Shown one piece after another: positions 3,460 through 56,890 of a stretch of 64,000 nucleotides of DNA (the stretch's first letter is position 1; every line of letters starts with the position of its first letter). The notes below the pieces were generated by a model. The model saw only the letters and a list, made by a program, of their open reading frames with translations. It was not told the origin of the DNA and ran no database searches. Location of the stretch: positions 31,050,948 through 31,114,947 of the forward strand of contig OX638370.1 in assembly GCA_951812925.1 (NCBI GenBank), in the 5' to 3' direction. The stretch is from Calliopum simillimum (taxonomy: Eukaryota; Arthropoda; Insecta; Diptera; Lauxaniidae). The translations under genes and the position numbers were made by a program.

Positions 3460-4034
3460 CACAGGCCCACAAAAAAAAAAGTACCATGCGCGAAAGATCA
3501 GACCACCTGAACTTTATGTTCTCGGGGTCGCTGAATCCGAATATGGTGTCAGAATAGCGAAGTTGGTTCGCGTATTTTCAGAAATCAGCAATTACCTTGA
3601 AAATTTAAGATATTTTTCAGCATTATTTCTGATTTCTGAAAAAACGCGAACCAACTCAGCTATTCTGGCAGCATATTCGGATTCAGCGACCCCGGAAACA
3701 TAAAGTTCAGGTGGTCTGATCGTTCGCGCAGCGATTTTTTTTTTTTGGTTCAGTGCACAGACCAAAAAAAAAATTGCCTTGCGCGAAAGGTCAGACCACC
3801 TGAACTTTATGTTTTTGCTGAATCCGAAGATGGTGCCAGATTAGCGAAGTTGGTTCTCGTTTTTTCAGAAACCAGCAAAAATCAGTAATTTTCAGCATTA
3901 TTGTTGATTTCTGAAAAAACGCGAACGAACTTCGCTATTCTGGCACCATATTCGGATTCAGCAACCCCCAAAAACATAAAGTTCAGGTGGTCTGATCTTT
4001 CGCGCAGGGTACTTTTTTTTTTTGTGGGCCTGTG
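3460..4034. mobile_element. Tandem dimer of foldback elements, CACAGGCC family, inserted in mariner
   Basis: Two palindromic units abut exactly: 3460-3755 (CACAGGCCC to GGTTCAGTG) and 3756-4034 (CACAGACC to GGGCCTGTG). Each unit has arms of about 130 bp with a short loop. They share inner text such as GATCAGACCACCTGAACTTT and GCTGAATCCGAATATGG. The outer junctions are TTA on the left and CAA on the right. The empty site in the mariner sibling (minus strand near 33800-33815) reads ...AAGTTATCAATGG, so the insertion fits a 3-bp TTA target duplication whose right copy has mutated. No ORF is present. Confidence 0.88.
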
Positions 4035-4469
4035 CAATCAATGGAAAAATTAATTTTCTTAACTATTGTAAACAAAACAAATAGCAATTGTACATCAAAA
4101 CGTTCTGAGTACGTTTATGCTAAAAAATGTCAAACTTTGTTATGGTGTTGCCAGATTTTAGCTATTGCCATTAGTGTTGCCTAGGCCAGAAACATATAAA
4201 GCAGCCCACGTATTAAATTAACGATTGCTGTTGGATTCTCTAACTAAGATCGAATTTCAATTAGAGCTGTGTAACCTACCATTCGCCCTTTTCCACGAGG
4301 TCAGTGATGAAAGGTTTTGTTTTCGCCCGGAAACGCCTCTATACTGAACAGCTCTATCTTACATAATGAAAAGCTTTTTAGCTTTGTTCTGAAGGTTGAA
4401 ACAAATCGTTGTGCCTTTAAATATGTAAATTACTCCAATAAATGAGGTATTCCCGAAAATAAAATTTAA

Positions 4470-4794
4470 TCCTATCGACCCGAAAAAATACTGTGGGGTA
4501 CAAAATATTTGTGATAGGTTAATCATAGAAACTTAATTTAAGTAAAATGTTTGACAGTCTCTTATTTCAAATTTTCACCGCCAGAGGCGCTTCCGGTCTA
4601 TATTCCCAACAAATGTTTTTGATTTGAATTTTTGGGACATAATGTCCTTGGAGTGGTTATAAGAAAAAACAGTAGTTACTAAAAATTGCATTATTTTTAT
4701 TAATTCATTCAACTTAAATGACGTTAGTAACCGAGATATGTAAGTATTTATTAAAAAATTTTTGGGATATATTATCCCAACCGGTTCGAAAGGG
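4470..4794. mobile_element. piggyBac-like MITE with TTAA target site (copy 1)
   Basis: A 325-bp element bounded by TTAA on both sides (4466-4469 and 4795-4798). Termini are inverted: left TCCTATCGACCCG, right (complement) CCCTTTCGAACCGG. A copy in the opposite orientation lies at 59186-59493, also TTAA-flanked, sharing text such as TCACCGCCAGAGGCGCTTCC and ACCTATCACAAATATT. TTAA duplication with CCC-starting termini is the hallmark of piggyBac transposons. No transposase is present, so this is a non-autonomous derivative. Confidence 0.8.
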
Positions 4795-4798
4795 TTAA

Positions 4799-5331
4799 GA
4801 GTTTTTCCTGATTCCGATTGAAATTCATTTCAGAACAGGGCTGATTGTGATTTTTTTATATCAGCTTAGATTTGCTCTTCTGAAAAATTATGAACACATG
4901 CGATAGCAGCTTTTGCCATCTGAACATAAAGTTAATTGTGCGTTGGAAAAAACGCTTATGTTGAAATCATCTCTTTTGACAGTACATTATCTAATTATTT
5001 AACTATATATTTTGAATTGGAAAAATAGCTTATGAAGTTTTGTCTACAGCAAATTATAAGAAGACTATAGATTATATTCCATATGAGATTGTACGTCTTA
5101 ATGAGATAAGTCAAAGCGCAACCATCAATAATTTATTATACAATATTATTCAAGTTTTGTACAAGGATACTTTTAAATATGAAGATCGTACAGGTGTTCT
5201 TAATTCAGTTTTTGGTTAATTCGACTTAAGAGCAGTTTTTTTTTTCTTTTTGCCGCAGATATAGAAAATGTTGCAGAGAATTGAAGTTACTAGCTAGTTA
5301 TTGTGCACGATAGAAGGGTTTTGTGTAGAAC
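4799..5331. other. AT-rich non-coding stretch
   Basis: I see no gene and no element boundaries. The sequence is AT-rich with scattered short open frames only. Confidence 0.55.
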
Positions 5332-5523
5332 AAATGCTTGGATTAATTTTAAAAACAAAAAGTATTTATAAAAAACAATGCCAAAAAAGTATTAATTTTT
5401 AACTATTTTGGAATAAATTTTAAACTTTTTTGGAAAAGTCGGAATTTAATACCAAAAAAGTTTAAAATCAATACTAAAGAGAATCAAAAGTAAGAAAAGA
5501 AAACTACCATTTTTCAGTGTGTA
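5332..5523 (-). mobile_element. MITE-A copy 1 (TA-flanked, CACAGT termini)
   Basis: Reverse-complement copy of a roughly 220-245 bp repeat found at least six times in the window. Diagnostic text includes the complements of AAATTTATTCCAAAAAAGTA, TTTTTTGGCATTGTTCTATA and GATTCCCTTTAGTATTGAT. The right end here (ccatttttcagtgtgta) corresponds to the left terminus of plus-strand copies. The left end is diverged. Confidence 0.8.
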
Positions 5524-7280
5524 GTATGTTTTTTCAGCACTTCTAGAATTTTTTTCAGCATTTTTTCAATATTTTCGTTATATTCTTTTAACCTTTTCTA
5601 ACAATTTTCGAAATTTTCGCTACGTGTCTAATTTCACCCTTAAAAGCGTTTTTCGTTTAAAGCTTTCTTAGAAAAGTTGGAATTGTTAATAAATTAGACT
5701 AACGCTTAAGTCTAGCAGAGTTGACTTGAAAACGAAAAATAATTTGGAAATTAAAGATAACAATCTGGATATTGCAATATAAATTTTTTGAGTAAACTAA
5801 ACTGGAATCATGTGCAAAAATTCCAGCATGTTGTGGAAAAGTGTTGATTGTGGTTAAATGAAATTTTATAAATGATTCAGTAGAAATAAATGTAATTAAA
5901 ATCAGCAGCAACATCATTACGGACTGGTGTAAAAAGCAACATTTATGAAATAACAATAGCAACAACAACAACAACAGTAGCAATAACAACCAAATTTCTT
6001 TACAAACTGAAGTTTTCATTCATCAGAATTCACCCATATGTTTGTGTTCCGTGCGAGTACGTGTTTTTCAAGTTAATTAAAAACTGTTGGTGTTTGTTGT
6101 TGTTGTAGTTGCTGTTGCTCTACTGTTGATGTTGCTGCTTTAGTTGCTGAAAATTCAGCTGCTGCTGTCAACAGTACCAGCAGAGTTTACATTTTAAAAA
6201 CATTTCTAATGATGAAAACAACAACAACGACAATAAAAATACCAAAAATAAAAAGGCACGAGCATCTTCTTTTGCTGCTGCAACAACAACATTTTTGTTG
6301 CTCACACACAATTGGGCAACTCTTCTTGCAACACCAACATTTTTATTTTTTGTTGCTGTTGTTAACTTGTTACGATATTTGACGTAGATAAATGTTTGCT
6401 TCTTCTCTTTTTTTCTTTGTTTTTGTTGCTTTTATTTTAAAGTTTTATTTTTAATTTCGTGGGTACGCGCATACTGACATAAGATACTTGTTTCAGAGAT
6501 AAAAAAGGTACATACGTTATTTTATATCTGAATGAATGAATCTCAGTCGTTGGTGGCAGCAAAGCGTTGTGTTGTTTAAATATTTTACTTTTTTTTCACA
6601 AGTTTAGTGTTTAGTGTTGTTGTTACTGGCGTTAATGATAATGATGTTTGCATGTTGATAATGTTGCTGTTTGTCGATGATTGCATTCTGTTGCTGCTTA
6701 TCATTACGTACATATATCAGGCATTGTAGTGCGTCATCTCATTTAAATGATGACAAAATATTTGCTCATGCATAGCATTGATACGACAAGTTAGTATGTC
6801 ATTCATCTTGATCTGTGTATCAAACTTCAAGATTTAATTCCATTGTTTGATTTGTCATTGAGTTTAATTAATTATTTTAATTTTATTAGAGTCCAATGTT
6901 GAGTTTAATGCAAATAATAGTGCAAGCAAATTTTGGGAGTTAAAGATGCTTTAAATCTTTTGATTAAAGTTTTTTCTATATAATGGTGGAAAGGTCATAT
7001 TTTGCCCTTTAAGGTCTATTGTTTATGATATTTACCCTTTATTGCTGGAAAACTTGAAAGTACTAACAAATATCTTTCAAACGATTTATGTACTTATACC
7101 TAGATAAATCGGTGACATAGTACTATAACTCATTGGTATATCACTGATATACCATCATTGCAACATCTACTATAGAATGTTTTTGCCTGAAATTTTTCGA
7201 AATTTGCAGTTGGGTTCTCAGATATTTATAAAAATTTGCAGAGCTGTTCTACATACTCAGTATAGAGATCGCTTAATTTA
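5524..7280. other. Non-coding DNA with CAA/CTG-rich tracts
   Basis: From about 5936 to 6370 there are clusters of CAACAA, CAGCAG and TTGTTG/TTGCTG trinucleotides, typical of fly introns and regulatory DNA. The 106-codon minus-strand frame over 5699-6019 is a leucine run made by CAA repeats and has no other coding character. I recognise no gene or element boundary. Segment 6590-6720 is rich in GTTGTT and ATGATG. Confidence 0.55.
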
Positions 7281-7524
7281 CACACATTAAAAAATGATAG
7301 ATTACTTTTCTTACTTTTAATTCCCTTTAGTATTGATTTAAAACTTTTTTGTTATTAAATTCCGATTTTTTACCAAAATAGTTTGAAATTTATTCCAAAA
7401 AAGTATGAAATTTATTCCAAAAAAGTATGAAATTTATTCAATAGTTTAAAATTTATATTTTTTGGCATTGTTCTATATAAACACTTTTTGATCTTAAAAT
7501 TAAACTAAAATTTTTACTGTGTAG
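7281..7524 (+). mobile_element. MITE-A copy 2
   Basis: Near full-length plus-strand copy beginning CACACATTAAAAAATGATAG and ending TTTTTACTGTGTAG. The termini are imperfect inverted repeats of about 20 bp. The AAATTTATTCCAAAAAAGTA block is present twice in tandem. TA dinucleotides lie at both edges in better copies, fitting a Tc1/mariner-mobilised MITE. No coding potential. Confidence 0.85.
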
Positions 7525-7869
7525 TTTTGCGGGAAAATTTTTTTTTACAAGTTATGGGCATGGAGCTTCAGAGTGTCTAAATAGTGATTTTCTCAAAATA
7601 ATAATTTTTTTTTAAAATTTTTTTTTTTTATAGAAAGGTGGATGAAAAACAAACGTTTTTCAAAAGATTTGGTCTGCGCTAAATGCTTGTGAGAGCCGCA
7701 CAAATTTTTTTTCTGAAAAGTCACGTGACAATTTTTTCAATTTTATTTTGTGCTTTGAGTAACACCCACTAATTGGCCAAAAAACAAAAATTCAAAGTAG
7801 GAGAGTATTACTTCCATTGCTTAGAAAATACAAGGTGTACAAAAAAACCAATATTTCCCATATAAATTA
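7525..7869. other. Non-coding spacer
   Basis: I see nothing beyond AT-rich sequence with T-runs between the MITE and the foldback element. Confidence 0.5.
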
Positions 7870-8763
7870 CACAGGTTTACAAAAACAAAAAAATTTCATG
7901 GCGTTTTGACCGGACTATGTGTTTCCTAGGGACTTTGCCGTCCTGAATCCGAATCCCGGGTCCGTTTTTTCCCAGAACGTCTGAGAAAAAATATTTCAAG
8001 GTCATATGGAGGTCATGTGTCATTTAGTGATAAATTTGCTAAAATTCTGAAACTAATTTTTTATCATTTAATTCTTAGTCTTTAAAAATAATATGTGATC
8101 AAAAAAGGGTATTTCGGATCTACTTTCGGAGACATAGCCATCGGAAGATCCGGATATATCTTCTATGAAAACCGCTATAAGTTGGGAACCCCTGAATGGA
8201 TTTGTAAAATATTGGTGTCATATGAAAGGTATTTTGACAGCCTTTAAAAATGTTCTTGGCATATTTTCAATTGGATTCATAGTTTTCGAGATATCAGCTT
8301 ATTTGAAATTTTGTGAAATTTTTCAATTACTACAACAAATAAATCAACAACACCAGCAACAACAACAAAAACAACAACAACAATAAAATACCTTTCATAT
8401 GACACCAATATTTTCCAAATTCATTTAGGAGTTCCCAACTTATAGCGGTTTTCATAGAAGATATATATTCTGATCTTCCGATGGCTATATCTCCGAAACT
8501 AGGTCCGAGACACCCTTTTTGCTCACATATTCTTCTTAAGACCTAAAAGCTCAATGTTTAAAAATTAGTTTTAGAATTTTAGCGAATTTATCACTAAACG
8601 ACACATGAGCCCCATTTTGATCTCCATATGACCTTGAAATCTTTTTTCTCAGACGTTCTGGAAAAAAGCGGACCCGGGATTCGGGTTCAGGATGTCAAAG
8701 TCCCTAGGAAACACATAGTCTGATCAAATCGGCATGATATTTTTTTTTTTTTGTAAACCTGTG
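7870..8763. mobile_element. Foldback element, CACAGGTTT termini, TTA target duplication
   Basis: Starts CACAGGTTTAC (7870) and ends GTAAACCTGTG (8763). Flanks are TTA on both sides, a 3-bp target duplication. The arms are about 370-400 bp and diverged by scattered substitutions: left GGACTTTGCCGTCCTGAATC pairs with right GGGTTCAGGATGTCAAAGTC. The loop (about 8240-8386) holds a CAACAACAGCAACAA tract that creates a false glutamine-rich ORF on the plus strand. Inner text CTGAATCCGAATCCCGGGTC matches the phrase shared by other foldbacks. No transposase. A related arm-like fragment lies near 38755-38890. Confidence 0.88.
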
Positions 8764-9239
8764 TTATTAGTGGAGTCAATAAAGCCTTTTAGATGGAAGT
8801 CTTCAAGAACAGCTCCGATTTTGATGATTTTTTTTATTTAAATTTTATTTTTTTTATTAAAAATCAGAAACATTTTGGAGCGCGGTCGGAATTATATACT
8901 TAATTTTTTAAGCAATATTTAAAAAAGTTATGTTTTCATAAAAAAAAAATTTGAAAAAAATACAACAAATAAAAATCAAAATAGTCATTTTATTTGTATT
9001 TGGCAATTCTAAAATTAAATCTGGCATTAGAATTGCTGTATCTTATATGGTTTCTGAGATATCTTCTCTTTTAATAGGGTCTAAAGTTGTGTCTATAAAA
9101 ACTGTTGTAATTTTTTTCTCAAGAACGGCTCAAGCGATTTTAATGAAACTTTGGAAAATTATACGCATTAGCATATAGTATACTAAAGAATGGAGTAGAC
9201 CTTGACTTACTATATACTTATGAAGAGGCGTGACACCGC
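8764..9239. other. AT-rich non-coding stretch
   Basis: No gene supported. Part of 8990-9080 (AATTCTAAAATTAAATCTGG, then a TTGCTGTATCTTATATGGTT segment) is a weak echo of the foldback phrase seen near 15560-15600, so it may be a decayed foldback arm. Confidence 0.45.
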
Positions 9240-9603: not shown

Positions 9604-9728
9604 AGTACTGTCCCAGAAATTTGATACTTTTATTCCTTAAGATAATGATTTACCTGAAAATCGTGCAGGTCGAAATATGGGTGCTATTTTTTCTATATAA
9701 CATGACTATTAAAAAAAATATATAACAC

Positions 9729-10680
9729 TTGGTAAACAAACTTCAAACGATAAAGATGTCTAGCAATCAAGAAAAAAAGCGCGAACTCATTTTGTACACT
9801 TACCTGCAAAAACCAGAATTAAAATATTCAGCCATAGCTAAAAAAACAGGTACATCAAAAATCACTGTCCAAAGGGTTATTTCGAATTATAGAAAAGGTC
9901 AACTTATTACGCGGGAAAAGGGTTCAGGTAGAAAAGCCAGTATAGACCCACAGTTGGTGTAAAAGGTGAAGCGCCTTTTTAAGCAGAATCCCAACACTTC
10001 AGAACGAGATATGACTGCCAGAGCAGGAACCTCAAAATCTTCTATAAACAGACTAAAGAAAAAACTTAAGCTAAAGACCTACAGAGTTCAGAAAGTACCA
10101 GACCGTTCCGATGAAAAGCAGTTAGAGGCTCAAAAGCGAGCTCGAAAGTTATATGTCGGTTACCTGACAAAATTTGACTGCTGCATAATGGGCGATGAAA
10201 CATACGTTTAGGCAGATTTTAAACAGCTACCAAGACACGAATTTTATACCTGTTCGGAGAAGGGGCAGGTACAGAGCAAAATTAAAGAGAAGAAAATTTA
10301 AAAATTGCCCAAGCATTATATGGTTTAGCAGGCTATATGCACTTGCGGTCTGAGAAGCAGTTTTTTTTTGTAACACAGGGCACAATTAACTTGAAAATTT
10401 ATATTGATGAATGTCTTGAAAAACGTCTTTTGCCATTTATTCGTGAGCACGGGGGTACTGTAATGTTCTGGCCTGATTTAGCAACCTCTCACTACGCTAG
10501 AGCCATCATAGAATGGTACAATAGCAATAATGTAAATTTTGTTCCCAAAAATGCGAATCCACCTAACTGCCCAGAGCTTCTACCTAATGAAATCAGATCT
10601 TCGGAGGAGTAAAAGTACTGCAAAAAATTTAAAAGATTTCAAAAATAAATGGTGAAGGTCGTAAGGTACTGTCGACGAAA
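9729..10680 (+). pseudogene. DD37E Tc1-like transposase, degenerate
   Basis: This reads as a Tc1/mariner-superfamily transposase of the DD37E type. The N-terminal part (9729-9959) has the helix-turn-helix words YSAIAKKTGTSKITVQRVIS and then GSGRKASID. A second helix-turn-helix region follows (GTSKSSINRLKKK). The first catalytic Asp is in MGDETYV (codon 10194-10196), the second in FWPDLA (10475-10477), and the Glu in PELLPNE (10589-10591). There are 37 residues between the last two, hence DD37E. In-frame stops occur at 9960-9962 (TAA) and 10209-10211 (TAG), with a further stop near 10300 and at least one frameshift before 10337. The C-terminus decays after 10612, though a NLMQGV-like tail is still hinted at around 10690. 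It is dead. I could not fix the terminal repeats. Confidence 0.9.
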
Positions 10681-10700
10681 CAACTGTACAAAACTTAATG

Positions 10701-11095: not shown

Positions 11096-11099
11096 ATAT

Positions 11100-13930: not shown

Positions 13931-13934
13931 GATC

Positions 13935-15322: not shown

Positions 15323-16288
15323 ACACGGCGCTCTTAAACAGTCGATAGGTTTTTTGGCTATGTGGAGAAAATCTGTGAATGGGGTTTCATGTGTATTAGT
15401 TTAGTGGTCTGAAAAATGCAAACCCCGAAACCGTAGCTGATCATCCCCGCGAAATATCGCAAAAATACATATCCCATATAAAAAAAAAAAAAAAAATCGA
15501 AAAAAAACGCAACAAACATATATAAAAATAGTTATATTTAATGTGTTTTGCTGAATGCTGAATCCAAATCCGGCCTTAGAATTGCTGTATCTTATACGGT
15601 TTTTGAGAAATCCAAGCCTAAACAAGGAAAAAAAGCTGACGCTATGTTTTATTGTTGTGTTTTGGAGCTATATAACAGGACGTATATCCGTAAATTCTGA
15701 TGCAGAAATGGAAAACTCTAATCAATCTTATAAACCTAATTCAAATAATGTCGAAATCTTTATTTTTCTCGGAGATATCCTAACCTAAAAAGTTAAAAAA
15801 GTGCAAAAAACGTGTTTTGTCATTATTTCAGTCTACGATATTTCGGTGAAAAATTAAGCTATTGATATAATTTAAATGTGATTTTAAAGAAAAAGATTGG
15901 ATCTTTTAGATAATGTATCGAATTCTGCGTATGAATGTTCTATATTCTAGTTATATAGCTTAAAAATATAGCAAAAACGGTATTTTTTCCTTGTTTAGGC
16001 TAAGATATCTCAAAAACCGTATGAGATATAGCAATTTTAAGGCCGGATTCAGATTTAGCATTGCAAAATACATTAAATATAACTATTTTTATATTTGTTT
16101 GTTGCGTTTTTTTTCCGATTTTTTTTTTTTTTATATGGGATATGTATTTTTGCGATATTTCGCGGGGATGATCAGCTACGATTTCGCGGTTTGCATTTTT
16201 CAGACCACTAAACTAATACAAATGAAACCCCATTCACAGATTTTCTCCACATAGCCAAAAAACCTACCGACGGTTTAAGAGCACCGTG
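15323..16288. mobile_element. Foldback element inserted in the 26-bp satellite
   Basis: Arms of about 400 bp or more begin ACACGGCGCTCTTAAAC and end GTTTAAGAGCACCGTG. Matching inner text includes GGCTATGTGGAGAAAATCTG and GCTGATCATCCCC. The arms differ by scattered substitutions. The satellite resumes right after the element (16289). The same satellite variant without insertion occurs at 14515-14530 (CTACTGTATATGTGACGCC), giving the empty site and placing the insertion at a TA/TAW target. Inner text GCTGAATCCAAATCCGGCC links it to the other foldbacks. Confidence 0.88.
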
Positions 16289-19860: not shown

Positions 19861-19864
19861 AAAA

Positions 19865-26181: not shown

Positions 26182-26847
26182 CACAGGCCTACAAAATTTG
26201 GCAAAGTTATTTTACCAGAAACCAGACTATACTTTTCCGATGTATTTTGACGTGCTGAATCCAAATCCGGGGTCAGAATTGCTCTATTGGCTCAGGTTTC
26301 CGAGATATCCTAACCTGAAAGTGCTAAAAACACTGTTTTGGCCTATATTTACGCTTATATATCATCGCCTATCGATTTTTACTCCAAAACCTGTATACAT
26401 CATCTTAAAGTATGACCCTTAATCTTTTAAATGCCATTGAGTTTGCTCAAATATCTTTTTTTTTTTTCACTGAGAAATGCCACTTTGAAAAACTCATGGG
26501 TTTGTGGAAAGAGTTGTTTGTTCACATACATAAATTCATAAAGTGTAAATTTTTCAAAGTGGCATATCTCAGTGAAAAAAAAAAAGATATTTGAGCAAAC
26601 TCAACGGCATTTAAAAGATTAAGGGTCATACTTTAAGATGATGTATACAGGTTTTGGAGTAAAAATCGATAGGCGATGATATATAAGCGTAAATATAGGC
26701 CAAAACAGCGTTTTTAGCACTTTCAGGTTAAGATATCTCGGAAACCTGAGCCAATAGAGCAATTCTGACCCTGGATTTGGATTCAGCACGTCAAAATACA
26801 TCGGAAAAGTATAGTCTGGTTTCTGGTAAAATTTTTGTAGGCCTGTG
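26182..26847. mobile_element. Young foldback element with nearly identical arms, TAA target duplication
   Basis: Begins CACAGGCCTACAAAA (26182) and ends TTTTGTAGGCCTGTG (26847). Flanks are TAA on both sides. The arms (about 290 bp) are almost identical, so both strands carry the same 60-codon frame (FDVLNPNPGSELLYWLRFPR type). The loop near 26500-26530 is short. Because the frame is present only as a mirror image and matches phrases in non-coding foldbacks, I regard it as DNA-level conservation and not a gene. The small arm divergence indicates recent insertion or arm homogenisation. Confidence 0.92.
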
Positions 26848-33461: not shown

Positions 33462-33630
33462 AATCCCCTCATTAAACGTATTCTTTCTCAAAATTTTTCG
33501 ATTTAATACTTTTTGATTTTTTAAACAAAATTCGAATTCTTCAAAATTTTTTTGACATTTTTTTAAAATTTTTTTGATCTTATCTAACTATTTTCACCAT
33601 TTATTTACTTTTAAATGTTCCAACCTTTTA

Positions 33631-34344
33631 CGTAGGCTTCTATATGTATGTCTAGCCTAGAAAACACTAATGTCAATAGCTAAAATCTGGCAACACCATA
33701 ATAAAGTCTGACTTTTTTAGCATAAACGTACTCACAACGTTTTGATGTGCAAGTGCTATTTGTTTTGTTTACAGTGAGTTAAGAAAATCAATTTTTCCAT
33801 TGATAACTTAAGCGATTGATAAATTATAACGTTTTTTACAACTAAGTGTTTATGCAAAATCGAATGTATTCAAGTGGAACTAATGTGAAAAGATGCTTCT
33901 ATCTCACAATATGTCACGTGACGTTCTTGCATTATCGGTTCATGCACTGCATCGATGTTTTCTGGCACAACAACTGATTTTGGACGACCTTCACGGAATT
34001 CGTCTTTGAGCGAGCGTCGGCCACGATTGAATTCATTAAACCAGTTTTTCATAGTGCTATAGGATGGTGCTTCATCGCCATACAAAGATTTAAGTTCAGC
34101 ACTCTTGTCGTGATAATCCACGTCGGAAGTTGTGAAAAATGATCGCACGAAAATGTTCACGAGTTAATTCCATTTTTTTGCCAAATTGATTATTTCAAGT
34201 CACTGTAAACAACTCAAATGATGGTCGTACGTCAAAACGTTCTGAGTACGTTTATGCTAAAAAATGACAAACTTTATGGTGTTGCCTGATATTAGCTATT
34301 GACATTAGTGTTGCCTAGGCCAGAAATATATATAGCAGCCTACG
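33631..34344 (-). mobile_element. Internally deleted mariner, empty-site sibling
   Basis: TIR-bounded element (CGTAGGCTTC at 33631; GCAGCCTACG at 34335-34344) with TA on both sides. On the minus strand it holds the mariner N-terminal transposase region and then jumps at CCATAATTTATCAATCGC|TTAAG to the 3' untranslated end, as does 2908-4210. It lacks the foldback insertion and so preserves the target (TTAAGTTATCAATGG on the minus strand). Confidence 0.88.
33870..34160 (-). pseudogene. Mariner transposase N-terminal fragment
   Basis: On the minus strand the frame includes ELKSLYGDEAPSYSTMKNWF, NEFNRGRRSLKDEFREGRP, VVPENIDAV and HVTYCEIEASFHISST, covering both helix-turn-helix subdomains and the linker of a mariner transposase. 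The start is frameshifted: the family start (MELT) is on another frame near 34172. A stop follows ISST. The DD34D catalytic core is deleted. Non-functional. Confidence 0.9.
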
Positions 34345-35843
34345 TAATAGGTATCTTCGAAATTCATTTGGAGACTATTTCGCATTTTTTCTAATGAGTT
34401 CATGCAGCAAAAAGATAAGTAGGGAACTTCCCTCTTATATCAAGTATGGCGCACACAGATGCAGATTAAGGAGGAGTGCTTAATATTTTTATTGAAAGTC
34501 CTAGTCTTTATTTTCAAAACCTTTTTGAACTTATCGATATAATTTTTTTTTTTTTCGAAATACACCTTAGAATATGTTATTTCAATATAATTCGAAAATG
34601 TTGACTATTACTTTCAATAACCACATCAAGTTTGCAAAAATAACATAAGATCCGTGTTTTATTCACTTTTATGTTAGGATTTCTTAAAGGTCAGACCCAT
34701 CTCCTGAAGGAGAGCATTTAGGGTATTCCGGGTTTTCAATCTAAGTACATATTACATACTTAGTTTTTTTTGCATATCAAAAAAAATCAATTTCTGAAAT
34801 TTTGATTCCAAAAATTACCAGCTATGATTTAGGAAATACAGCGTTTTCTTTGTGAAAGGCTTTATAAAAATACTGATACACAATAAACCTCTACATTTTG
34901 GGTTAATAATAAGTTGCTTCCTGCACGGTGTGCGGTGATAAACGATACAATGAATTTTGCGGTGCACCAGTGCAGACCTCTGGTAGATACTATTATATTA
35001 ACATATAACCATATGACACAAATATTGATGATGACAATGGTGTGACTTTGTATCGCAACTACTAAGCTAACAAACTTTTTGAAAATCTGCTAAAATATGT
35101 AAGAAGTATAAGGTAACAAAATTATTCCAAAGAGAGATGATACTCTCCTTATACTAACTACATGTATTCAAAGTTCAAAGCCAGTAAAAGTACATATACT
35201 CGTTGCAGTAAGTACATGTTACTTTGAAATAATTGTGAATAAATACATTTTACATATTCTTCTTCAAATATGCATTTATGATTTTGTATTTAAAATGCAC
35301 AGAATATTCATATATGACATCGAATGAATAAATTATGCGCTGTCATGTTGTGATTGAACTCGTAGAGTATTTCGCACCGCATCTTCAACTGTATACATTA
35401 CAATTTGAATCTACAACTTTAACAGCAATTGTATTTGCAACTGTACATAGCACTCATAGTTAACACAAAATGTTTTTGTAGATACGAGTAAATGTTAAAT
35501 TCAAATGAATAATTAAACTTTTTTTTATGAATAACTACGGATAGCTTGTCATTTTGAACATCTGAGTTATGTGACAAATATCTTGATTGCATTTCAATTC
35601 AGTTGATAATACATTTCTATATAAATATTGTAATAGTCATTAGAATTAAATATTGTGTAATTGAAAAATTTCAGATTTCTACGAAATAGAGAAACCAATG
35701 TATGCCGGATGTGACTAAGAGAATATTATAAGAGAAAGAGAGAAGACACAGATAATTGCCTCAAATCTAAAAGCGTTATGGAAAATATTAAAAAAAAGGG
35801 AAATAATTAAAATGAAAAAATAAAAATAATTAAAAAAAAGAAT
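34345..35843. other. Non-coding stretch
   Basis: AT-rich, no gene or element recognised. Confidence 0.5.
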
Positions 35844-38477: not shown

Positions 38478-38985
38478 CACAGGCACAAAAAAAAGTCAAG
38501 ACCCAGAGGGTTCACTCTCAAGCTCCACGTATTTTGTGGCTCTGAGGGCCCGAATATCCCATTAAAAAATAACATAAAACGATTGGTTTTCACGCTAGCG
38601 TCCCCTTAATACCCCCCTTCGCGGTTATAATTTTACTTTTTTAAAAAATTGGAAATTTGTGCGGCTAAAGTCAAGCGTTGCTCCCAGAACCCAATTTGGT
38701 TTAAACCAAGCTTTTCTTGTTAAAGTTATAATTCTTACAAAAAATGTTTTTTCAAAAATTGTCATATGACACCAATATTTTTAATATCCATCAAGGGACT
38801 CAGAACTTATACTTGTTTTCATAAAAGCTACATCCCGATCTTCCGATTGCTACATCTCCGAAACCAGATCTGAGCGACACTTTTTGTTTTTGCTGTTGTT
38901 GTTGTAATTAATTTTTAAAGCCATATTTTGGCAAAAAAAAAAAATTTGGCTTTGGGAGCAACGCTTGACTTGTTCCATTTGTGCA
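38478..38985. mobile_element. Decayed foldback with CACAGGCACAAAA end
   Basis: A CACAGGCACAAAAAAAAGTC terminus (38478, preceded by TAA) is followed by an inverted pair GTCAAGCGTTGCTCCCA (38670-38686) / TGGGAGCAACGCTTGAC (38953-38969). The span between (38755-38890) matches an arm of the foldback at 8390-8520 (TCATATGACACCAATATTTT; GATCTTCCGATTGCTACATC). Only part of the palindrome remains. Confidence 0.6.
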
Positions 38986-39570: not shown

Positions 39571-40966
39571 TAGTACAGTCATTTGGTAGTTTTACCTGGA
39601 AAGTTTTGCGGGATTTCTGCAAATGAGCTATTTTATAGATTTCGATGTGCTCTTTCAGAATTTCAACTTTGCTACCTCGAATCGTGTTCGCTCGCGCCGC
39701 CATATTGGAAAAATGGCGTCCAAAATCAGTTTTTTTCAAATATCTCTTTAACGGTCACATTTATAGAAAAATATTGTGGCGCAATATTGTAGCTTATAAA
39801 ATTTTCTATAAAAATGACCTATCAATTGTTTTCGTACGACTTATAACTTAGGAGATATCCTAATTTAAAATTTGAAAAAAATTAGTAAATTGTGCATGCC
39901 GCTTATGAATAGGCACATTGATGTGTTGAGCTTAAAATTACGATAACTCATGAACGATGAGTCACACGTTTAAAATAAAAAATTGTTAATTATGGGGAAT
40001 TACTTGCACTACAATTTACATATAAAGTTTTTTTTCAGATGAGCTATGATTCGGGAGATATTTTTTAAACAAACCTAAAATTTAGAAAAAAGCCGTTTTT
40101 TCAAAATGGCTCCAAAACGGTTCGTCCTAGAAAAAAAAATTTTTCACGCATTTTGTAGGACGTTTAATTTCCTATAAAGATTTTTTCGAAGTGTTTTTTC
40201 GTCAGACTTACCCTTCATGAGATATCTCGACTTGAAAATCACTCAAAACTGAACTTTGTACTGCGGATAGTACAATGTTCAATTTTGAATGATTTTCAAG
40301 ACGCGATATCTCATAAACGGTAAGTCGGACGAAAAAACAGTTCGGAGAGACCCTTATAGGGAATTGAACTTTCTATAAAATGCGACAAAATGTTTTTTTC
40401 TAAAACTTACCGTTTTGGAGATTTTTTGAAAAAACGGTTTTTTTCAAAACTTCAGGTTTGTTATAAAAATATCTCCTAAACTATAAGTCATCTGAAAAAA
40501 AATCTTATTTGGATTATAGTGCAAGTAATTCCCTATAATTAGATATTTTTACTTTAAACGTGTGGCTCACCGTTCATGAGATATCGTAATTTTAAACGCA
40601 ACACATCAATGTGCCTATTCATAAGCAGCATGCACAATTTACTATTTTTTTTCAAATTTTAAATTAGGATATCTCCTAAGTTATAAGTCGTACGAAAACA
40701 ATTGAAAGGTCATTTCTATAGAAAAATTTATTAGCTACAATATTGCGCCACAATATTTTTCTATAAATGTGACCGTTAAAGAGATATTTGAAAAAAATTT
40801 ATTTTGGACGCCATTTTTCCAATATGGCGGCGCGAGCGAACACGATTCGAGGTAGCAAAGTTGAAATTCTGAAAGAGCACATCGAAATCTATAAAATAGC
40901 TCATTTGCAGAAATCCCGCAAAACTTTCCAGGTAACATCATTTTATTCTCCCAAATGATTGTACTA
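39571..40966. mobile_element. Large foldback element (TAGTACARTCATTTGG termini)
   Basis: A 1.4-kb palindrome with arms of about 690 bp: TAGTACAGTCATTTGG at the left and CCAAATGATTGTACTA at the right. GAT directly flanks both ends, a possible 3-bp target duplication. Inner text includes TCGCGCCGCCATATTGGAAA and GGAGATATC phrases. Arm identity is high, giving the same open frame on both strands (SANELFYRFRCALSEFQLCY type), which I treat as mirror-image non-coding DNA. No transposase. Confidence 0.9.
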
Positions 40967-45040: not shown

Positions 45041-45202
45041 ACACTAAAAAATTGATTCCATTTAGTATTGATTTTTTCCATAAAAGTTTGAAATTTACTC
45101 CAAAAAAGTATGAAATTTATTCCAAAATAGTTTAAGATTAATACATTTTTTGACATTGTTCTGTATAAATATTTACTTTTTAGTTTTAAAATTTACTGTG
45201 TA
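45041..45202 (+). mobile_element. MITE-A copy 3 (internally deleted)
   Basis: Begins ACACTAAAAAATTGATTCC and ends AAATTTACTGTGTA, with the ACTCCAAAAAAGTATGAAAT core. It is shorter than copy 2 because the block around the second TTAAATTCCGATTTT is missing. Confidence 0.8.
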
Positions 45203-45229
45203 TATGTGACCGTCCAGCGGAAAAGGTAA

Positions 45230-45689
45230 CTAATCTTCACGAAATAAAAGAAACCGTTTTTATGCATTTTCTAAAAAACCATACAATTTTGAATAAAATG
45301 ACACCCCGATCACTGGAAAGTTCCAATAATTGACTGAGTTATGGCATTTTGAAATCGTATAATGAAAAGATTATAAGATTTCATGATGTCATCTTAGTGT
45401 AGCCATAACTTTTGAAGGAAAAATCGTAGACGACCACTCGCCACTTTTTTGGAAAGGAGAATATCAAAATATTCTGGTGCACTTTACGGAATAGAGCAGA
45501 AAAAATCCTTGCGTCCTGGAACTCAATTTGAAATAGAGCAAAAACGTCGTTTTTTGCATTTTTAGATTAGGATACCGCAAAATCTTGACGATGTAGAGGA
45601 ATTCTGTGGCCAGTTTTGGACTCAGCACAACGAAATCTTTTGGTTTTTTAAAGTAAAAAATATTCACGTTCCAGGTCTGTACGCACATC
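45230..45689. mobile_element. Half of a decayed foldback
   Basis: The minus-strand text at 45464-45688 reads like the arm of 26182-26847 at the word level (LSPKLATEFLYIVKILRYPN against LNPNPGSELLYWLRFPRYPN), and phrases like GCCATAACTTTTGAAGG occur. The matching second arm is not adjacent, so only one arm survives. Confidence 0.5.
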
Positions 45690-47235
45690 AGTTAAAGTGG
45701 TGCAAAACTGTCAACACACGGCGTGCTTGAACCAAGTTTAAATAAAAGTTTCTTGCATATGAGTTTTTTGACTGTATTATGTTACGTAATAACTTCACGA
45801 ATCAAATGATCCCAAAATTAAAAAAATCGAATGGGCCCTTTTTGAAATAAGGAGCCTTAAGCAATAACTATAAAAAGTTAATACAACACAAAATTAAAAA
45901 TATTTGTAACATTTTGCAAACCATTTTTTCTAAACTAATTTGAGGTCGCTGAACACGAAAAACGCATTTATTTTTTTTTTTCCTTGGGGTTGTTCCCAAG
46001 TTATTCGATAATTTTTAATTTCGAGGTTATAGCTTCATATACATCAACATATTTCTATGACGCCAAGTCCGATCAATTTTATTTTTCCACGCTTACAAAG
46101 AGTGATTAACGGCGCTTCTAACAAGTATACCAATAATTATGCTCCAAACAAAATTGACTAAGTTAAAGCAGGAAAAAGCTTGATATTTCAAAAATTTTTT
46201 AAATTTTTCACATCACCTTCAAATGAAACACTTTGTTTTTGGCACATATTTTTTTTTAAGTAATTATTTTTAGAAATGTGATTTAATGGCGCATATAATT
46301 GCAAATATTTTAAGACTATGTTGGGCAAAATCGAATGAAATTTCCAAAAGATATTAAGGTTTTAGTGCAATAGAGAAATTTCGATTTCTTTCAAAAATTA
46401 ATATTTTTGAAACAATCCGCAATGTTCTTCTACAGAAAATGATTAGAAGTTACTTAAATCATCTTTAAAGTGTTCAATAAGTGTAGGGTGTCCTATTTGG
46501 AGGCTGAAAAATTGGATCTGTTGACTCAGGTCGAACATTTCGAAAATTCTCACATCTTCCTTATTGCACTAAAGCCTTTATATCTTTTGGAAATTTCATT
46601 CGATTTTGCTCAACATAGGCTTAAAATATTTGCAATTATATGCGCCATTAAATCACATTTCTAAAAATAATTTAATAATAATTACTATGACTTGGCGTCA
46701 TAGAAATATATTGATGTATATGAAGCTATAACCTCGAAATTAAAAATGATCGAATAACTTGGGAACGACCCCAAGGAAAAAAAAAATAAATGCGTTTTTC
46801 GTGTTCAGCGACCTCAAATTAGTTTAGAAAAAATGGTTTGCAAAATGTTACAAATATTTTTAATTTTGTGTTGTATTAACTTTTTATAGTTATTGCTTAA
46901 GGCTCCTTATTTCAAAAAGGGCCCATTCGATTTTTTTAATTTTGGGATCATTTGATTCGTGAAGTTATTACGTAACATAATTCAGTCAAAAAACTCATAT
47001 GCAAGAAACTTTTATTTAAACTTGGTTCAAGTACGCCGTGAACATGTTTTCGAAACAGTTTTTTGTTCATTATTTTTTTATGGTGTAAAGTTCGGTAAAA
47101 TTGTTCACATATTTGAATAGAGGAAAAGTTGAGCTTCCTTTTGGTTCATATTTCTTGTTGGCCATGTAATCAGAACGGACGCTTTAGCAGTACTTAGTCG
47201 AAAATAGCAAACATGTTGACAGTTTTGCTACTTAC
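45690..47235. mobile_element. Large foldback element with arm indels
   Basis: Arms pair from CAAAACTGTCAACACACGGC (45703) to ATGTTGACAGTTTTGC (47213), including GCTTGAACCAAGTTTAAATA with TATTTAAACTTGGTTCAAG-like sequence and AACCTCGAAATTAAAAATGA. The left arm has about 190 bp (46080-46255) missing from the right; the right arm has about 170 bp (47042-47212) missing from the left. The central loop is near 46390-46550. No gene. The frame at 46470-46664 is part of an arm. Confidence 0.82.
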
Positions 47236-50056: not shown

Positions 50057-50459
50057 ATGCTGAGACATAATTTTATGTTCGAAAGGGTTGTGATACCCAG
50101 GTTTTACTTGAATCAGTTAAATCTACAAAGTCTCTTAAAACAAAAATCATGCTTGGCCCAATTGACAAACGTGATTTCCGTCTAATTACAGGTATATTAA
50201 TATTTACCAAAATTTGTTGATTTACACAGTGCCACAAATTGAGGAGAAACCAATCAGAATTTGGACACTGATTTTGAATGTGGCAACAGTTTTCTCCTAT
50301 CAGGTCTGAGATCCGAGTTATCTTTGATTTAAAGTGAAGGGAATGCTTCTTTCAGACATAAGGCGTACATTCAGTAAATAGTGTAGTTCACGTTTGTTTA
50401 CGGCATCGAATTGGGTCCATTGAAATAAAAGTAATCAAAATCCATGTAAAGCACCACAT

Positions 50460-50539
50460 TGGGGGTTACCGGGGAATTTTCTAAAACTGCAATGCAGTAT
50501 GAGAAAATTCCCCGGGAATCTTGATTCACGATAACCCCC
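50460..50539. mobile_element. Hairpin MITE-B, copy 3
   Basis: GGGGGTTACCGGGGAATTTT (left) and AAAATTCCCCGGGAATCTTG / ATTCACGATAACCCCC (right). The left arm has lost about 19 bp relative to 30809-30914, so only about 80 bp remain. Confidence 0.78.
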
Positions 50540-50608
50540 ATTAAATTTGTACGGATCTGACATACTTTTACTTCAATGAATGATACCTCAGAAAGTAATG
50601 ATCTACCC

Positions 50609-50829
50609 ACTAAAATATGATAGTTTACTTTTCTTAATTTTGATTCCCTGTAGTATTGATTTTAAACTTTTTTGATATTAAATTCCGATTTTTTTCCAAA
50701 AAAATTTCAATTTATTCCAAAAAAGTATGAAATTTATTCCAAAATAGTTTAAAATTAATACTTTTTTTTGGCATTGTTCTATATAAATACTTTTTGGTTT
50801 CAAAATTAAACTACAATTTTTACTGTGTA
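50609..50829 (+). mobile_element. MITE-A copy 4
   Basis: Near-complete copy from CACTAAAATATGATAGTTTA to ATTTTTACTGTGTA, nested in the foldback at 50225-51073. Confidence 0.85.
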
Positions 50830-51073
50830 ATTGAAAAAGGCATAGTTTAAGGAGGAAGCTTAGGGCTAATCAATGCCGTTGGCAATAGTGAACTAAACTA
50901 CTTCTTGGGTGTACGCCATATGCCTGAAAATAGCTTTTTCATCACTTTAAATCACGGATAACTCGGATCTAAGTCTTGATAGAAAAAAACAGTTTCCAGA
51001 TTCGGAATCAGCGACCCTGAATTAGTCAAATAAAGCTTTTGAAATCAAATTCAGATTTTTATGTTGCACAGTG

Positions 51074-51857: not shown

Positions 51858-51861
51858 TGAA

Positions 51862-52800: not shown

Positions 52801-53257
52801 GCACCCCATTTTTTTTACGGAATTCTGTTAAACATCGTATTTCAACATGTTTTCAATGAAAAATTTCAAAATCCTTAGAGCACTTCGGAAATGATCGGCT
52901 AACGAACGATTTCCATGTTGCTTTAGCCGAAGCAAATAAGGATAATTCTGAAATATAGTTCCAAATGAATTTTTTTTCCGGAATCGTATTCATTAATGCA
53001 TAAAAACTAACGTGTGAAAAGTATATAGCAAAATCGTAGGCCCAAAAAAAGTTATTCAAGGTCAAAAGTTGCGAAAATAATTAAAAAAAATAAAAAATTA
53101 TTTCGCTTACGGCTGCAATTACGAATAAATAATGGTCGACAGTTATTTACTGAGTCAACAGTTGTTTAGCCTCAATGATTTACTATGTACGAAAAACCTT
53201 CATCAATTTTTTTTCTATTACTCATTGTTTAGGAGGTTAGTCAATTTAAAAAGTTTT

Positions 53258-54100
53258 AAAACTTCGCGATATTTATATGTTGTACTATTTAAATTGAGAT
53301 AACTCTCGAACGACTAATCGGACAAAAAAAGTAACTTACTTGTTTGTAGAAAATTATATTTCCTACAAACTATTCTCAGCACTTTTTTTCGTACGACCTA
53401 TGGCTTAGGAGATATTTTTCACAAACCGTTCAAATTTTGAAAAACTATTTTTTTAAGGAAATCTCTGGAGCTGTTTTCGCTAGATAAAAAGGAACGGGAT
53501 CTATTTTATTAAAATTTTCATGATCTACAAATAATATTTGATACATATATACGAAATAATTATCCTAAAATTTTTTAGTCGAAAAAAAAGAAAAAAAAAA
53601 TTGGCAAAAACGTTAAAATTGCGAACATTCACGTCTTCAAAATTAATAAAAACTAATAAAAGATTCATAAAAACTAGACCAAAATTCATCATACTTCTTT
53701 CAAAGAAATTTTTTATTCAAAACTTAAAGAATTCACTCAAAACTCGCCATTTTTATTTTTTTTTTTTTTAAGTAAAAAAATTTTGCGATAATTATTCCGT
53801 ATTTATTTATCAAATATTATTTGTAGATCATGTAAATTTTAATAAAATAGATCCCGTTCCTTTTTATCGAGCGAAAACAGCTCCAGAGATTTCCTTAAAA
53901 AACTAGTTTTTCAAAATTTGAACGGTTTGTGAAAAATATCTCCTAAACTATAAGTCGTACGAAAAAAAGGACTGAGAATGGGTTATAGGAAATATAATTT
54001 TCTACAAACAAGTATGTCTTTACTTTTTTGTCTGAGTAGTCGTTCGAGAGATATCTCAATTTAAAAAGTACAACATATAAATATCGCAAAGTTTTAAAAC
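53258..54100. mobile_element. Nested foldback in the left arm
   Basis: TTAAAACTTCGCGATATTTA at the left pairs with TAAATATCGCAAAGTTTTAA at the right. Arms of about 370 bp include TAGATAAAAAGGAACGGGAT and its complement, GGAGATATTTTTCACAAACC and GTCGTTCGAGAGATATCTCA. The loop (about 53570-53790) carries a K/F-rich chance ORF. Confidence 0.85.
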
Positions 54101-54604
54101 TGAGTCAAATTTTTTCAACTGAGCCATCTAAAACGGACTTTTCGAAATGTAAATTTTTTTTCTCCTTATCGGGCACGTTTAAGGATCAGAAATTTTTTGG
54201 CGCTTAAATTTTTCCAAAATTTTAATTTTTCTATGTGCTGCGTACAGTAGAACTTTCTTGAGTTGTTTTCTTTCTTTGTTTCTTTCTTTGCTATTGCTCA
54301 GTAAATACTTAATGGAATTGAAAAATTTTTTTCTCAGTATATCCGTAAATGATACGCGCACAAAATTTAATGGCGTCAAAATTTTTTAATTTTTTTTACT
54401 AATCAAAAATGCATTTTGAAATATGCAACTGCAAGATAACTGAACTTCTCATATGCTTTGAAAACAAAAACAACAAGGATATGATAGGGCAAACATTCAT
54501 ATACTTATCTACAAAAAAAAAATTTTTGTGCAAACCATTACTGACAATGTTATGAATATTTGTTTAATGGCGCGCAAAATTTTTTATATAGAAAATGATA
54601 TCTG

Positions 54605-55266
54605 AGTGCAACAAATTGAGAGAAAACAATTTCTAATGAGATCTCTATAATTGTATTAGTTAACTTATGGTCGTTGAATCCGAATTTGGCACCCAATTTT
54701 CTCCATCAGGAATATGATCCGTGCTGTCTTTGATTTAGAATTCAAAAAACGCTATTTTTAAACATATGGTGCAGATCCAGGAGGTAGTTTATTTGACTTT
54801 TGTCAACGTTAACGGATAGCCATTATCTTCCTTATTATATCTTACCTTTTAACTTTTCCAATAAGATCATTACTTTCTGAGATATCATTCTATGAAAAAG
54901 AGTTATTTGACTGTATACAAATTGATTTTATTTAATGTATGTAAAGGATTAAATACAGTCAAGATAATTTTACTTCAATGAATGATATCTCGAAAAGTAA
55001 TGATCTGATTGGAAAAGTTAAAAGGTAAGATATAATAAGGAACATAATGGCTATCCGTTAACGTTGACAAAAGTCAAATAAACTACCTCCTGGATCTGCA
55101 CCATATGTTTAAAAATAGCGCTTTTTGAATTTTAAAGCAAAGACAGCACGGATCATATACCCGATGGAGAAAATCGGGTGCTAAATTCGGATTCAGCGAC
55201 CATAAATTACCCAAAACCATTATAGAGATCTCATTAAAAATTGTTTTCTCTCAGTTTGCTGCACTG
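54605..55266. mobile_element. Nested foldback at the centre, GTGCAACAAATTGAG family
   Basis: AGTGCAACAAATTGAGAGAA at the left and TTCTCTCAGTTTGCTGCACT at the right. Inner words GGTCGTTGAATCCGAATTTG and CCAGGAGGTAGTTTATTTGA pair across. The terminus matches that of 50225-51073, so they are one family. It sits in the middle of the larger palindrome. Confidence 0.85.
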
Positions 55267-56309
55267 AGATATCATATTCTATATAAAAAATGTCTGCGCG
55301 CCATTAAACAAATATTCATAGCATTGTCATAAATGGTTTGCACAAAAATTTTTTTTTTGTAGATAAGTGTATGAATGTTCGCCCTATCATATCCTTGTTG
55401 TTTTTGTTTTCAAAGCATATGAGAAGTTCAGTTATCATGCAGTTGCATATTTCAAAATGCATTTTTGATTAGTAAAAAAAATTAAAAAATTTTGACGCCA
55501 TTAAATTTTATGCGCGTATCATTTACGGATATACTGAGAAAAAAATTTTTCAATTCCATTAAGTATTCACTGAGCAATAGCAAAGAAAGAAACAAAGAAA
55601 GAAAACAACTCACGAAAGTTCTACTGTACGCAGCACATAGAAAAATTAAAATTTTGGAAAATTTTAAACGCCAAAAAATTTCTGATCCTTAAACGTGCCC
55701 GATAAGGAGAAAAAAAATGTACATTTCGAAAAGTCCGTTTTAGATGGCTCAGTTGAAAAAATTTTACTCAACTTTTAAATTGACATACCTCTTAAGCGAA
55801 GAGTAATAGAAAAAAAAATTTATGAGAGTTTTTCGTAGTAAATAATTGAGGCTAAACAACCGTAAGCGAAATAATTGAAAAAAAGTTTATTTTCGCAATT
55901 TTTGACCTTGTTAAATTTTTTTAGCCCTACGATTTTGCAATGTACTTTTCACACGTTAGTTTTTATGCATTAGTGAATACTATTCCGGAAAAAAAAAATT
56001 CATTTGGAACTATTTTTCAGAATTATCCTTAGTTGCTTCGGCTAAAGCAACATGGAAATCGTTCGTTAGCCGATTCGCTCCAAATGAAAACCAATTTTAT
56101 GAAAAACCTCGGCTTGATGCAGTTTTTATTTTAATAAGATTTTAAAAATACTCGGAATGAAGAGTGTTTTTCACCGATACTGAAACAGCAGTATGCCTAC
56201 TGCGACAGCAATATATGACTCCTAATATATCAATTAACTAACAATTATAATCTGTGCTGGGAAGGTTATACTTTTTTAAAACCAGCCATCAAAATTTGCC
56301 ACCAATTAA

Positions 56310-56890
56310 ACTGTGTAACTCGAAATTTTTATTGAGTTCGCGATTGCTATTACTTGAAATTAGTCGCCGGTTATTTTGAATCTGACAACGTTTTCCTCTA
56401 TCATCTCTGGGCTCCGAGTAATACTTGCTTTTAAGTGCAGAAAACACTTTTTCAGGAACAAGGCAGAAATCCAGAAAATAGTATTAATCACTTTTGTTAA
56501 TAGCATTGGATATCGGAAGCCTTCTACTATTTAAACATTACATTTAAACTTTTGAAAACGGGTCCTTACTTTCATAGTTATTATTGATTGAAGTACAGGT
56601 ATCCAATTCCATACATAGGACTAAAATATATTTGTGGAAGCAAGATTATTTTACTTCAATTGATGGTAACTTGGAAAGTATGAGTAAAATTGGGAAAGTT
56701 TAAAGATACAGTTTTATGAAGCTATCCGAGGCCATAAGCAAAAGTGAAATAATTTTTTCTGGTTGTATGCTATATGCACGAAAACAACGTTTTCTGCACA
56801 TCAAGGCAAAAAGATAGCTCGGAACCCAGACCCGACAGAAAAAAATTATAGCCTAATTTGGTATCAAAGAGCGCAAATTACACAAAAAAA
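56310..56890. mobile_element. Old foldback of the CACAGTGCCACAAATT family
   Basis: Diverged arms pair at GTGCAGAAAACACTTTTTCA / GAAAACAACGTTTTCTGCAC and ATAGCATTGGATATCGG / CTATCCGAGGCCATAAGC. The centre (TTACTTCAATTGATGGTAAC) matches the centre of 54605-55266. Arm identity is clearly lower, so this is an older insertion. Confidence 0.7.

What the first reader, a model, noticed from the sequence alone, without database searches (positions are those of the whole stretch)
3460..56890. A superfamily of long foldback elements fills about a sixth of the window
About ten long inverted-repeat units (3460-4034, 7870-8763, 15323-16288, 26182-26847, 38478-38985, 39571-40966, 45690-47235, 50225-51073, 52893-56075, 56310-56890) have arms of 130 to over 1000 bp and no transposase. 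At least three share CACAGG termini and two share CACAGTG/GTGCAACAAATTGAG termini. Such a density of kilobase palindromes in one fly locus is unusual and could be an undescribed, still active family mobilised in trans.
Basis: partly seen in the sequence, partly recalled or inferred. Interest (0 to 1): 0.8.

Follow-up and report, generated by a model that had tools for sequence, protein, structure and literature searches.

The report
Layered palindromic transposons in a fly
The long palindromes in this fly DNA are copies of several different high-copy, gene-less jumping elements; some carry an older palindromic element at their centre, which suggests that such palindromes can grow outward and acquire new ends.

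Summary
The palindromes are real (28 inverted-repeat hits; 0 in 20 simulated controls; 17.4% of the window). The density is not local: four arbitrary 10-kb stretches of the same 690-Mb genome average 14%. The six arms searched are all dispersed repeats. Copies of four families carry target-site duplications, so they are non-autonomous cut-and-paste transposons. They are not one family: ends and duplications are CACAGG/CACAGTG with TTA or TAA; GAGTC with 4 bp; CACGGTG with 4 bp; TAGTACA with 3 bp.

There is deeper kinship. A ~138-bp module, in inward-facing pairs, is shared by five units and weakly by two more. In two families with other ends (15324-16288 and 54102-55769) a relative of the CACAGG/CACAGTG foldback occupies the centre. 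In 2 of 65 copies examined, both from the other two families, flanking DNA is duplicated in inverted orientation around the element (about 220 bp and 1.07 kb per side). My best explanation is outward growth: a foldback triggers inverted duplication of its flank, and a transposon end in that flank becomes a ready-made inverted pair for another transposase. Growth and end-switching are inferred. No parent or autonomous partner was found.

The parts
3456..4038 (.). Foldback with CACAGGCCC ends (TTA left, CAA right); each half is itself an 82-84% palindrome; lies between mariner remnants
   Evidence: copies not searched in genome
7870..8763 (.). Foldback with CACAGGTTTAC ends, TTA on both sides; weak core-module pair
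   Evidence: copies not searched in genome
15324..16288 (.). Foldback with CACGGTGCTCTTAAAC-type ends, 4-bp duplication TAAA; inner 15541-16073 homologous to the 26182 unit
26182..26847 (.). Foldback with CACAGGCC ends, duplication TAA; core module in both arms
38478..38985 (.). Weak inverted repeat with a CACAGG start; part of it is 77-79% like the 7870-8763 unit
   Evidence: copies not searched in genome
39571..40966 (.). Foldback with TAGTACA ends, duplication GAT; each half contains an older inner palindrome (59-65%)
45717..47040 (.). Foldback, 367-bp outer arms at 97%; family not searched in the genome (requests not answered)
50225..51073 (.). Foldback with CACAGTG ends, TTA left and TAA right; core module in both arms; old, diverged family
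52894..56074 (.). Older foldback (52894-54101, resuming after the insertion below at about 55774), broken by that insertion; shared sequence extends left to at least 52844; right end truncated at 56074
54102..55769 (.). Foldback with GAGTCAAATTTTTTCAACTGAG ends, duplication AACT; 25 distinct full-length copies examined, this one included
54603..55267 (.). 665-bp relative of the CACAGTG foldback at the centre of the GAGTC element (491-bp arms on each side in the family majority sequence)
56310..56890 (.). Degraded foldback of the CACAGTG/core group (about 60-73% to the 50225 and 54603 units)
   Evidence: copies not searched in genome

Best explanation
The units are non-autonomous DNA transposons (long-arm foldback MITEs) of several families, cut and pasted in trans by transposases encoded elsewhere. 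One group (CACAGG/CACAGTG ends, TTA/TAA duplication, shared 138-bp inverted module) is Harbinger-like. Some larger families carry a relative of that group at their centre because palindromes grow outward: a foldback, exposed as single strand or broken, folds on itself and the flank is copied in inverted orientation; the old foldback then sits at the dyad of a longer palindrome, and any transposon end present in the copied flank now exists as a perfect inverted pair that a different transposase can mobilise. Shown: dispersal, ends, duplications, shared module, central position, two copies with inverted flank duplications. Inferred: fold-back copying as the process, and recruitment of new ends.
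For: Dispersal: first-look candidates 305, 4688, 1198, 1832, 1577 and 1091 for six arms (40 scored each). Duplications: GAGTC family 4 bp in 24 of 25 (shuffled mean 10.5, max 14); TAGTACA 3 bp in 12 of 15 (2.2, max 7); CACAGG TTA/TAA in 6 of 6 (3.0, max 6, so weak as a count); CACGG 4 bp in 9 of 12 (0.87, max 5). Module: an HMM from the CACAGTG-type and GAGTC-centre rows alone finds both arms of the CACAGG unit at 3e-10 and 4e-10, with 0 hits in 20 simulated windows; the 15541-16073 and 26240-26801 interiors align at 60%, E 1e-23. Centre: 491, 665 and 491 bp, outer arms 490 of 491 identical in the family majority sequence. Inverted flanks: L045, 218/226 bp, 93.6%, AAA left and TTT right; L073, about 1.07 kb per side, 98.3%, TTA left and TAA right; 2 of 65 copies, from families of which 19 and 10 copies were examined. 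Older inner palindromes inside the halves of 3456-4038 and 39571-40966.
Against: No copy of the GAGTC arm without the central foldback was found: the exclusion pattern gave one chance match, a weak test because its 18-mer occurs in only 14 of 50 arms. None of the 36 copies of the two layered families has inverted flanks. Central position in the GAGTC family follows from near-perfect arm symmetry, which later arm-to-arm conversion could also have restored. In the CACGG family, arm identity falls at about 260-320 bp, not at the inferred edge of the inner element near 190. The inner element's own ends are altered in the GAGTC family and unrecognisable in the CACGG family. At L073 a third CACAGG-type arm abuts the left edge of the large palindrome, so recombination between copies could have contributed. 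The halves of the 7865, 15323, 26177, 54101 and 56310 units show no inner palindrome, so repeated cycles are not general. The CACAGTG-only HMM did not find the 15324, 7870 or 3456 units, and its rows came from an alignment made with all five building units. No autonomous partner was found.
Confidence: 0.5

Rival explanations
1. Insertion into the centre: CACAG-type foldbacks preferentially insert at the dyad or loop of existing palindromic transposons.
For: Central position in the GAGTC family; the outer arms alone would form a complete palindromic transposon.
Against: Insertion makes direct duplications, but the flanks are inverted in L045 (AAA/TTT), L073 (TTA/TAA) and the GAGTC family centre (GATAT left, ATATC right; conversion could have altered this last one). 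An untargeted insertion would rarely hit the dyad.
Confidence: 0.17
2. Terminal-repeat extension from within, as described for Galileo: interior or inserted sequence in one arm is copied to the other by conversion or gap repair, enlarging the arms.
For: Reported for Galileo, including TE insertions that became part of both repeats (PMC4168063, section 10). In the CACGG family and the GAGTC centre the arms are more alike towards the ends, consistent with conversion.
Against: Does not explain inverted duplication of DNA outside the element ends in L045 and L073.
Confidence: 0.23
3. Separate elements only: each family arose independently, and the shared module is ancient homology among Harbinger-like elements whose ends drifted, with no growth step.
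For: Module identity is low (about 60-73%) between units.
Against: Duplication length differs (3 versus 4 bp), which drift of ends alone does not explain; the GAGTC family contains a CACAGTG-type end sequence 491 bp inside.
Confidence: 0.08
4. Assembly or palindromic-read artefact.
For: Palindromes can be misassembled (general knowledge).
Against: Many distinct dispersed copies with duplications; arms within copies differ, for instance by up to 20% in the CACGG interior; flank arms in L045 and L073 differ by substitutions and indels. No reads were available.
Confidence: 0.02

Closest known systems
PIF/Harbinger (PHIS) non-autonomous elements
   Same: TTA/TAA duplications, as stated for PIF/Harbinger in PMC4482050 (passages); DDE_Tnp_4 genes abundant in this genome.
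   Different: Ends CACAGG/CACAGTG; the one inspected Harbinger element with clear ends has GGGCCAG; arms reach to the centre, whereas about 93% of PIF/Harbinger repeats are under 60 bp (same passages).
Sola2
   Same: AT-rich 4-bp duplications such as ATAT and ATTT (reported for amoebozoan Sola2 elements in PMC3627910, passages); GAG start (GRG for Sola2 is recalled).
   Different: Foldback with no transposase; no Sola2 transposase was sought.
Chapaev (CMC)
   Same: 4-bp duplication and CAC start of the CACGGTG family (both Chapaev traits recalled). Two 'Chapaenov' elements are reported in Calliphora vicina (PMC3630058 section 11).
   Different: Palindromic, carries a Harbinger-like centre; no transposase was sought.
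Foldback and Galileo (P superfamily)
   Same: Very long terminal inverted repeats with changing structure.
   Different: Galileo duplicates 7 bp (PMC4168063 passages); here 3 or 4 bp. The Galileo extensions described there involve the element's own repeats and inserted TEs; here flanking DNA is duplicated outward in two copies.
Calliphora vicina 'Unknown 6'
   Same: Repeat of 488 bp, positions 1-465 palindromic (PMC3630058 section 19).

Membership tests
Non-autonomous TIR transposon (MITE-like) | Many dispersed copies with fixed ends | tested here: met
   dispersal for six arms; fixed ends in four families and the CACAGTG group; true ends of the 52894 unit not reached
Non-autonomous TIR transposon (MITE-like) | Target-site duplications of constant length | tested here: met
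   four families
PIF/Harbinger (CACAGG/CACAGTG group) | TTA/TAA duplication | tested here: met
   6 of 6 CACAGG copies with clear ends; L079 TAA/TAA; window 50225 unit TTA/TAA, one mismatch; 3456 unit TTA/CAA
PIF/Harbinger (CACAGG/CACAGTG group) | Autonomous partner with same ends and DDE_Tnp_4 gene | tested here: inconclusive
   150 scored matches; 2 loci inspected, neither with these ends
Sola2 (GAGTC family) | AT-rich 4-bp duplication | tested here: met
   24 of 25
Sola2 (GAGTC family) | Partner with Sola2 transposase | not tested
   no model or query at hand
Chapaev (CACGGTG family) | 4-bp duplication | tested here: met
   9 of 12
Chapaev (CACGGTG family) | Partner with Chapaev transposase | not tested
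   not sought
Foldback/Galileo (P superfamily) | 7- to 9-bp duplication | tested here: not met
   3 or 4 bp in four families; 7 bp for Galileo from PMC4168063, longer values recalled

The most novel reading that the evidence does not exclude
Foldback elements in this genome are a self-renewing engine: each can nucleate an inverted duplication of its flank, sit at the dyad of the longer palindrome, and by capturing any transposon end in that flank found a new mobile family driven by an unrelated transposase. Repeated cycles would make layered palindromes, older towards the centre, and could account for much of the roughly one seventh of sampled sequence that is palindromic.
Probability: 0.35. 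Interest if true: 0.75.

Novelty: new variant of a known kind. Interest (0 to 1): 0.5.

Why it matters
How gene-less transposon families arise, and why so many are palindromic, is an old question. Layered foldbacks with different ends, beside copies whose flanks are inverted, give a testable route by which one transposon system hands cargo to another. A genome with this many long palindromes is also a natural test bed for hairpin-driven rearrangement.

Tried and rejected
One family or locus-specific cluster: rejected. Chance palindromes: rejected (0 hits in 20 simulated windows). Assembly artefact: judged very unlikely for the families tested. Coding content: no stop-to-stop frame of 110 codons lies in a listed unit; of 77 frames of at least 75 codons ten were scanned against Pfam, giving mariner/Tc1-type helix-turn-helix remnants and weak sub-threshold matches. 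Rfam and tRNA scans of the window were empty. Parent of the GAGTC arm: one pattern match, 18 bp only, chance. Harbinger partner: L099 gave no convincing ends; L100 has TTA and GGGCCAGTTTTT. A first thought that 53252-54101 was nested in the centre of the 52894-56074 unit was dropped: copies L102 and L103 show one continuous palindrome. A first reading of the CACAGG ends without duplication was corrected once TTA/TAA was seen. Searches for the arm at 45717-46083 and for variant GAGTC ends did not complete; the units at 3456, 7870, 38478 and 56310 were not searched in the genome.

Papers: PMC3630058 (outline, sections 11 and 19, passages), PMC4168063 (section 10, passages), PMC3627910 and PMC4482050 (passages); all others from search listings only. 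I did not find centre-nested foldbacks with switched ends, or outward growth of this kind, in the listings; most subscription papers are not in that library.
Full report
OBSERVATION. A gapped comparison of the window with itself gives 28 close inverted-repeat hits at E<=1e-8; 20 Markov-simulated windows give none. Eight of the ten listed units are confirmed at that cut, one at lower stringency (56310-56890) and one only weakly (38478-38985). Palindromes span 17.4% of the window. Four arbitrary 10-kb stretches of the same genome average 14.2% by the same criterion, two having none and two having 36% and 21%, so high palindrome content belongs to the genome. The sample is small.

MOBILITY. The window lies in a 690-Mb assembly of 334 contigs. 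Six arms were searched, and all six are dispersed: first-look candidates were 305 (GAGTC unit), 4688 (TAGTACA), 1198 (CACAGG), 1832 (CACAGTG), 1577 (CACGG) and 1091 (52894 unit), of which 40 each were scored; these candidate numbers are not verified copy numbers. Among 25 distinct full-length GAGTC copies pairwise identity is 91.8-99.9%, median 94.6%; among 12 CACGG copies 92.0-96.8%, median 94.4%.

ENDS AND DUPLICATIONS. With ends fixed by motif and flanks shuffled between copies as control: GAGTC, 4 bp in 24 of 25; TAGTACA, 3 bp in 12 of 15; CACAGG, TTA/TAA in 6 of 6; CACGG, 4 bp in 9 of 12; each count includes the window copy. Of 30, 30, 12 and 13 loci given, five TAGTACA and five CACAGG loci were set aside for unclear ends; others lacked an end or repeated the same copy. 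Of those set aside, L066 and L069 read TAA/TAA and TTA/TTA by eye, and L063 TTA/TAA. L079 of the CACAGTG group reads TAA on both sides; single ends of L080, L081, L082 and L011 adjoin TTA; L083 and L084 do not fit. The CACAGG control is weak because the target itself is nearly fixed (shuffled mean 3.0, max 6). So at least four end/duplication types coexist, and the units are not one superfamily mobilised by one enzyme.

SHARED MODULE. Pairwise comparison with a permissive scoring links interiors across end types: 50225, 54603-55267 and 56310 units (about 60-73%), and 15541-16073 with 26240-26801 (60%, E 1e-23). A profile of about 138 columns finds the module in inward-facing pairs in these units, and weakly at 3456 and 7870; the five units used for building match by construction. 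Built only from CACAGTG-type and GAGTC-centre rows it still finds both arms of the CACAGG unit (3e-10, 4e-10) but not the 15324, 7870 or 3456 units; built only from CACAGG/CACGG rows it finds the 3456 and 7870 units and, weakly, 56310, 55112-55198 and 50927-51036. Neither version hits 20 simulated windows at E 0.01; the rows came from one joint alignment. Further pairs occur beside other elements in L039, L055 and L010. By the coordinates the module lies about 30-56 bp from the ends in the CACAGG/CACAGTG units (at the very end on the degraded right side of 56310), but about 200 bp (CACGG) and 540 bp (GAGTC) inside the other two.

LAYERING. In the GAGTC family majority sequence the central 665 bp begin and end with a CACAGTG-type end sequence (TGAGTGCAACAAATTGAG; elsewhere CACTGTGCAACAAATTGAG after TTA, L082) and are flanked by 491 bp on each side, 490 of 491 identical as inverted repeats. 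Equal offsets follow from that symmetry; the point is that nothing of the outer arms lies unpaired around the inner element. In the CACGG family the interior is a relative of the CACAGG foldback whose own ends are no longer recognisable; arms of the majority sequence are 97-100% alike over the outer 240 bp, 90% at 241-280 and 42-78% further in, the fall lying some 70-100 bp inside the inferred edge.

GROWTH. Two of 65 distinct copies of four families (25 GAGTC, 19 TAGTACA, 10 CACAGG, 11 CACGG) have inverted-symmetric flanks. L045 (TAGTACA family): 218/226 bp on each side, 93.6% with indels, AAA left and TTT right. L073 (CACAGG family, the wider stretch of L063): about 1.07 kb per side, 98.3%, TTA left and TAA right. 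Direct duplications from insertion are here replaced by inverted ones, as expected if the flank was copied across a folded element. A third CACAGG-type arm adjoins the left edge of the L073 palindrome, so ectopic recombination is a possible contributor. Each half of 3456-4038 is itself a palindrome (82-84%; no simulated control run for this unit), and the halves of 39571-40966 contain an older palindrome (59-65%, E 1e-16 and 1e-25; 5 of 40 simulated halves gave any hit at E 1e-3), so doubling seems to have occurred more than once in these two. The halves of the 7865, 15323, 26177, 54101 and 56310 units show no such inner palindrome, and the ones in the 45717, 50225 and 52894 units are shorter.

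MECHANISM. The cut-and-paste origin in trans is well supported. Fold-back copying of flanks and capture of a new end are inferred. That inverted repeats can fold and cause rearrangements is general knowledge; PMC10164571, on this, was seen only as a search listing. Galileo is reported to extend its repeats by tandem repeats, by recruiting internal sequence and through TE insertions (PMC4168063 section 10); outward growth with a change of duplication length would differ from that.

THE 52894-56074 UNIT. Of five other copies fetched, L102 and L103 run through the site where 54102-55769 is inserted in the window, and none of the five contains that insert within the stretch fetched, so the GAGTC element is a later insertion with duplication AACT. 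Shared sequence extends at least 50 bp to the left of the listed start in all five, and the window copy is cut short on the right.

PARTNERS. Harbinger-type transposase genes are common (150 scored of 734 candidates, many with open frames of 340-430 codons, several sets with identical scores). Two were inspected: L100 has TTA and GGGCCAGTTTTT ends, L099 no convincing ends. Neither carries CACAG ends. Sola2 and Chapaev transposases were not sought.

VERDICT. Ordinary in part (high-copy foldback MITE families), but the layering with different ends and the flank-inverted copies are unusual and testable.

Noticed in passing
   Followed up: no
window 2904-4214 and 33623-34352: Mariner (Mos1-type HTH_48) remnants with inverted ends; the 3456-4038 foldback sits inside the first.
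   Followed up: partly
window 9726-10609: What looks like a broken Tc1-like transposase: 9726-9959 matches HTH_23; the later pieces gave no transposase match in Pfam.
   Followed up: partly
L077 1445-4900: In an arbitrary stretch: inverted arms of 1,286 bp at 97.7% with an 885-bp spacer, longer arms than any found in the window.
   Followed up: no
window 5343-5523, 7279-7526, 45052-45193, 50603-50832, 60588-61165: Dispersed repeat with a 22-bp unit (ATTTATTCCAAAAAAGTNTGAA), inside or beside several palindromes.
   Followed up: no
window 45531-45636 and 8975-9073: Single, unpaired copies of the 138-bp module outside the listed palindromes.
   Followed up: no
window 45932-45976 and 46781-46826: Very weak inward-facing module pair inside the 45717-47040 unit (E 0.008 and 0.006), hinting that this unit may belong to the same group.
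   Followed up: no
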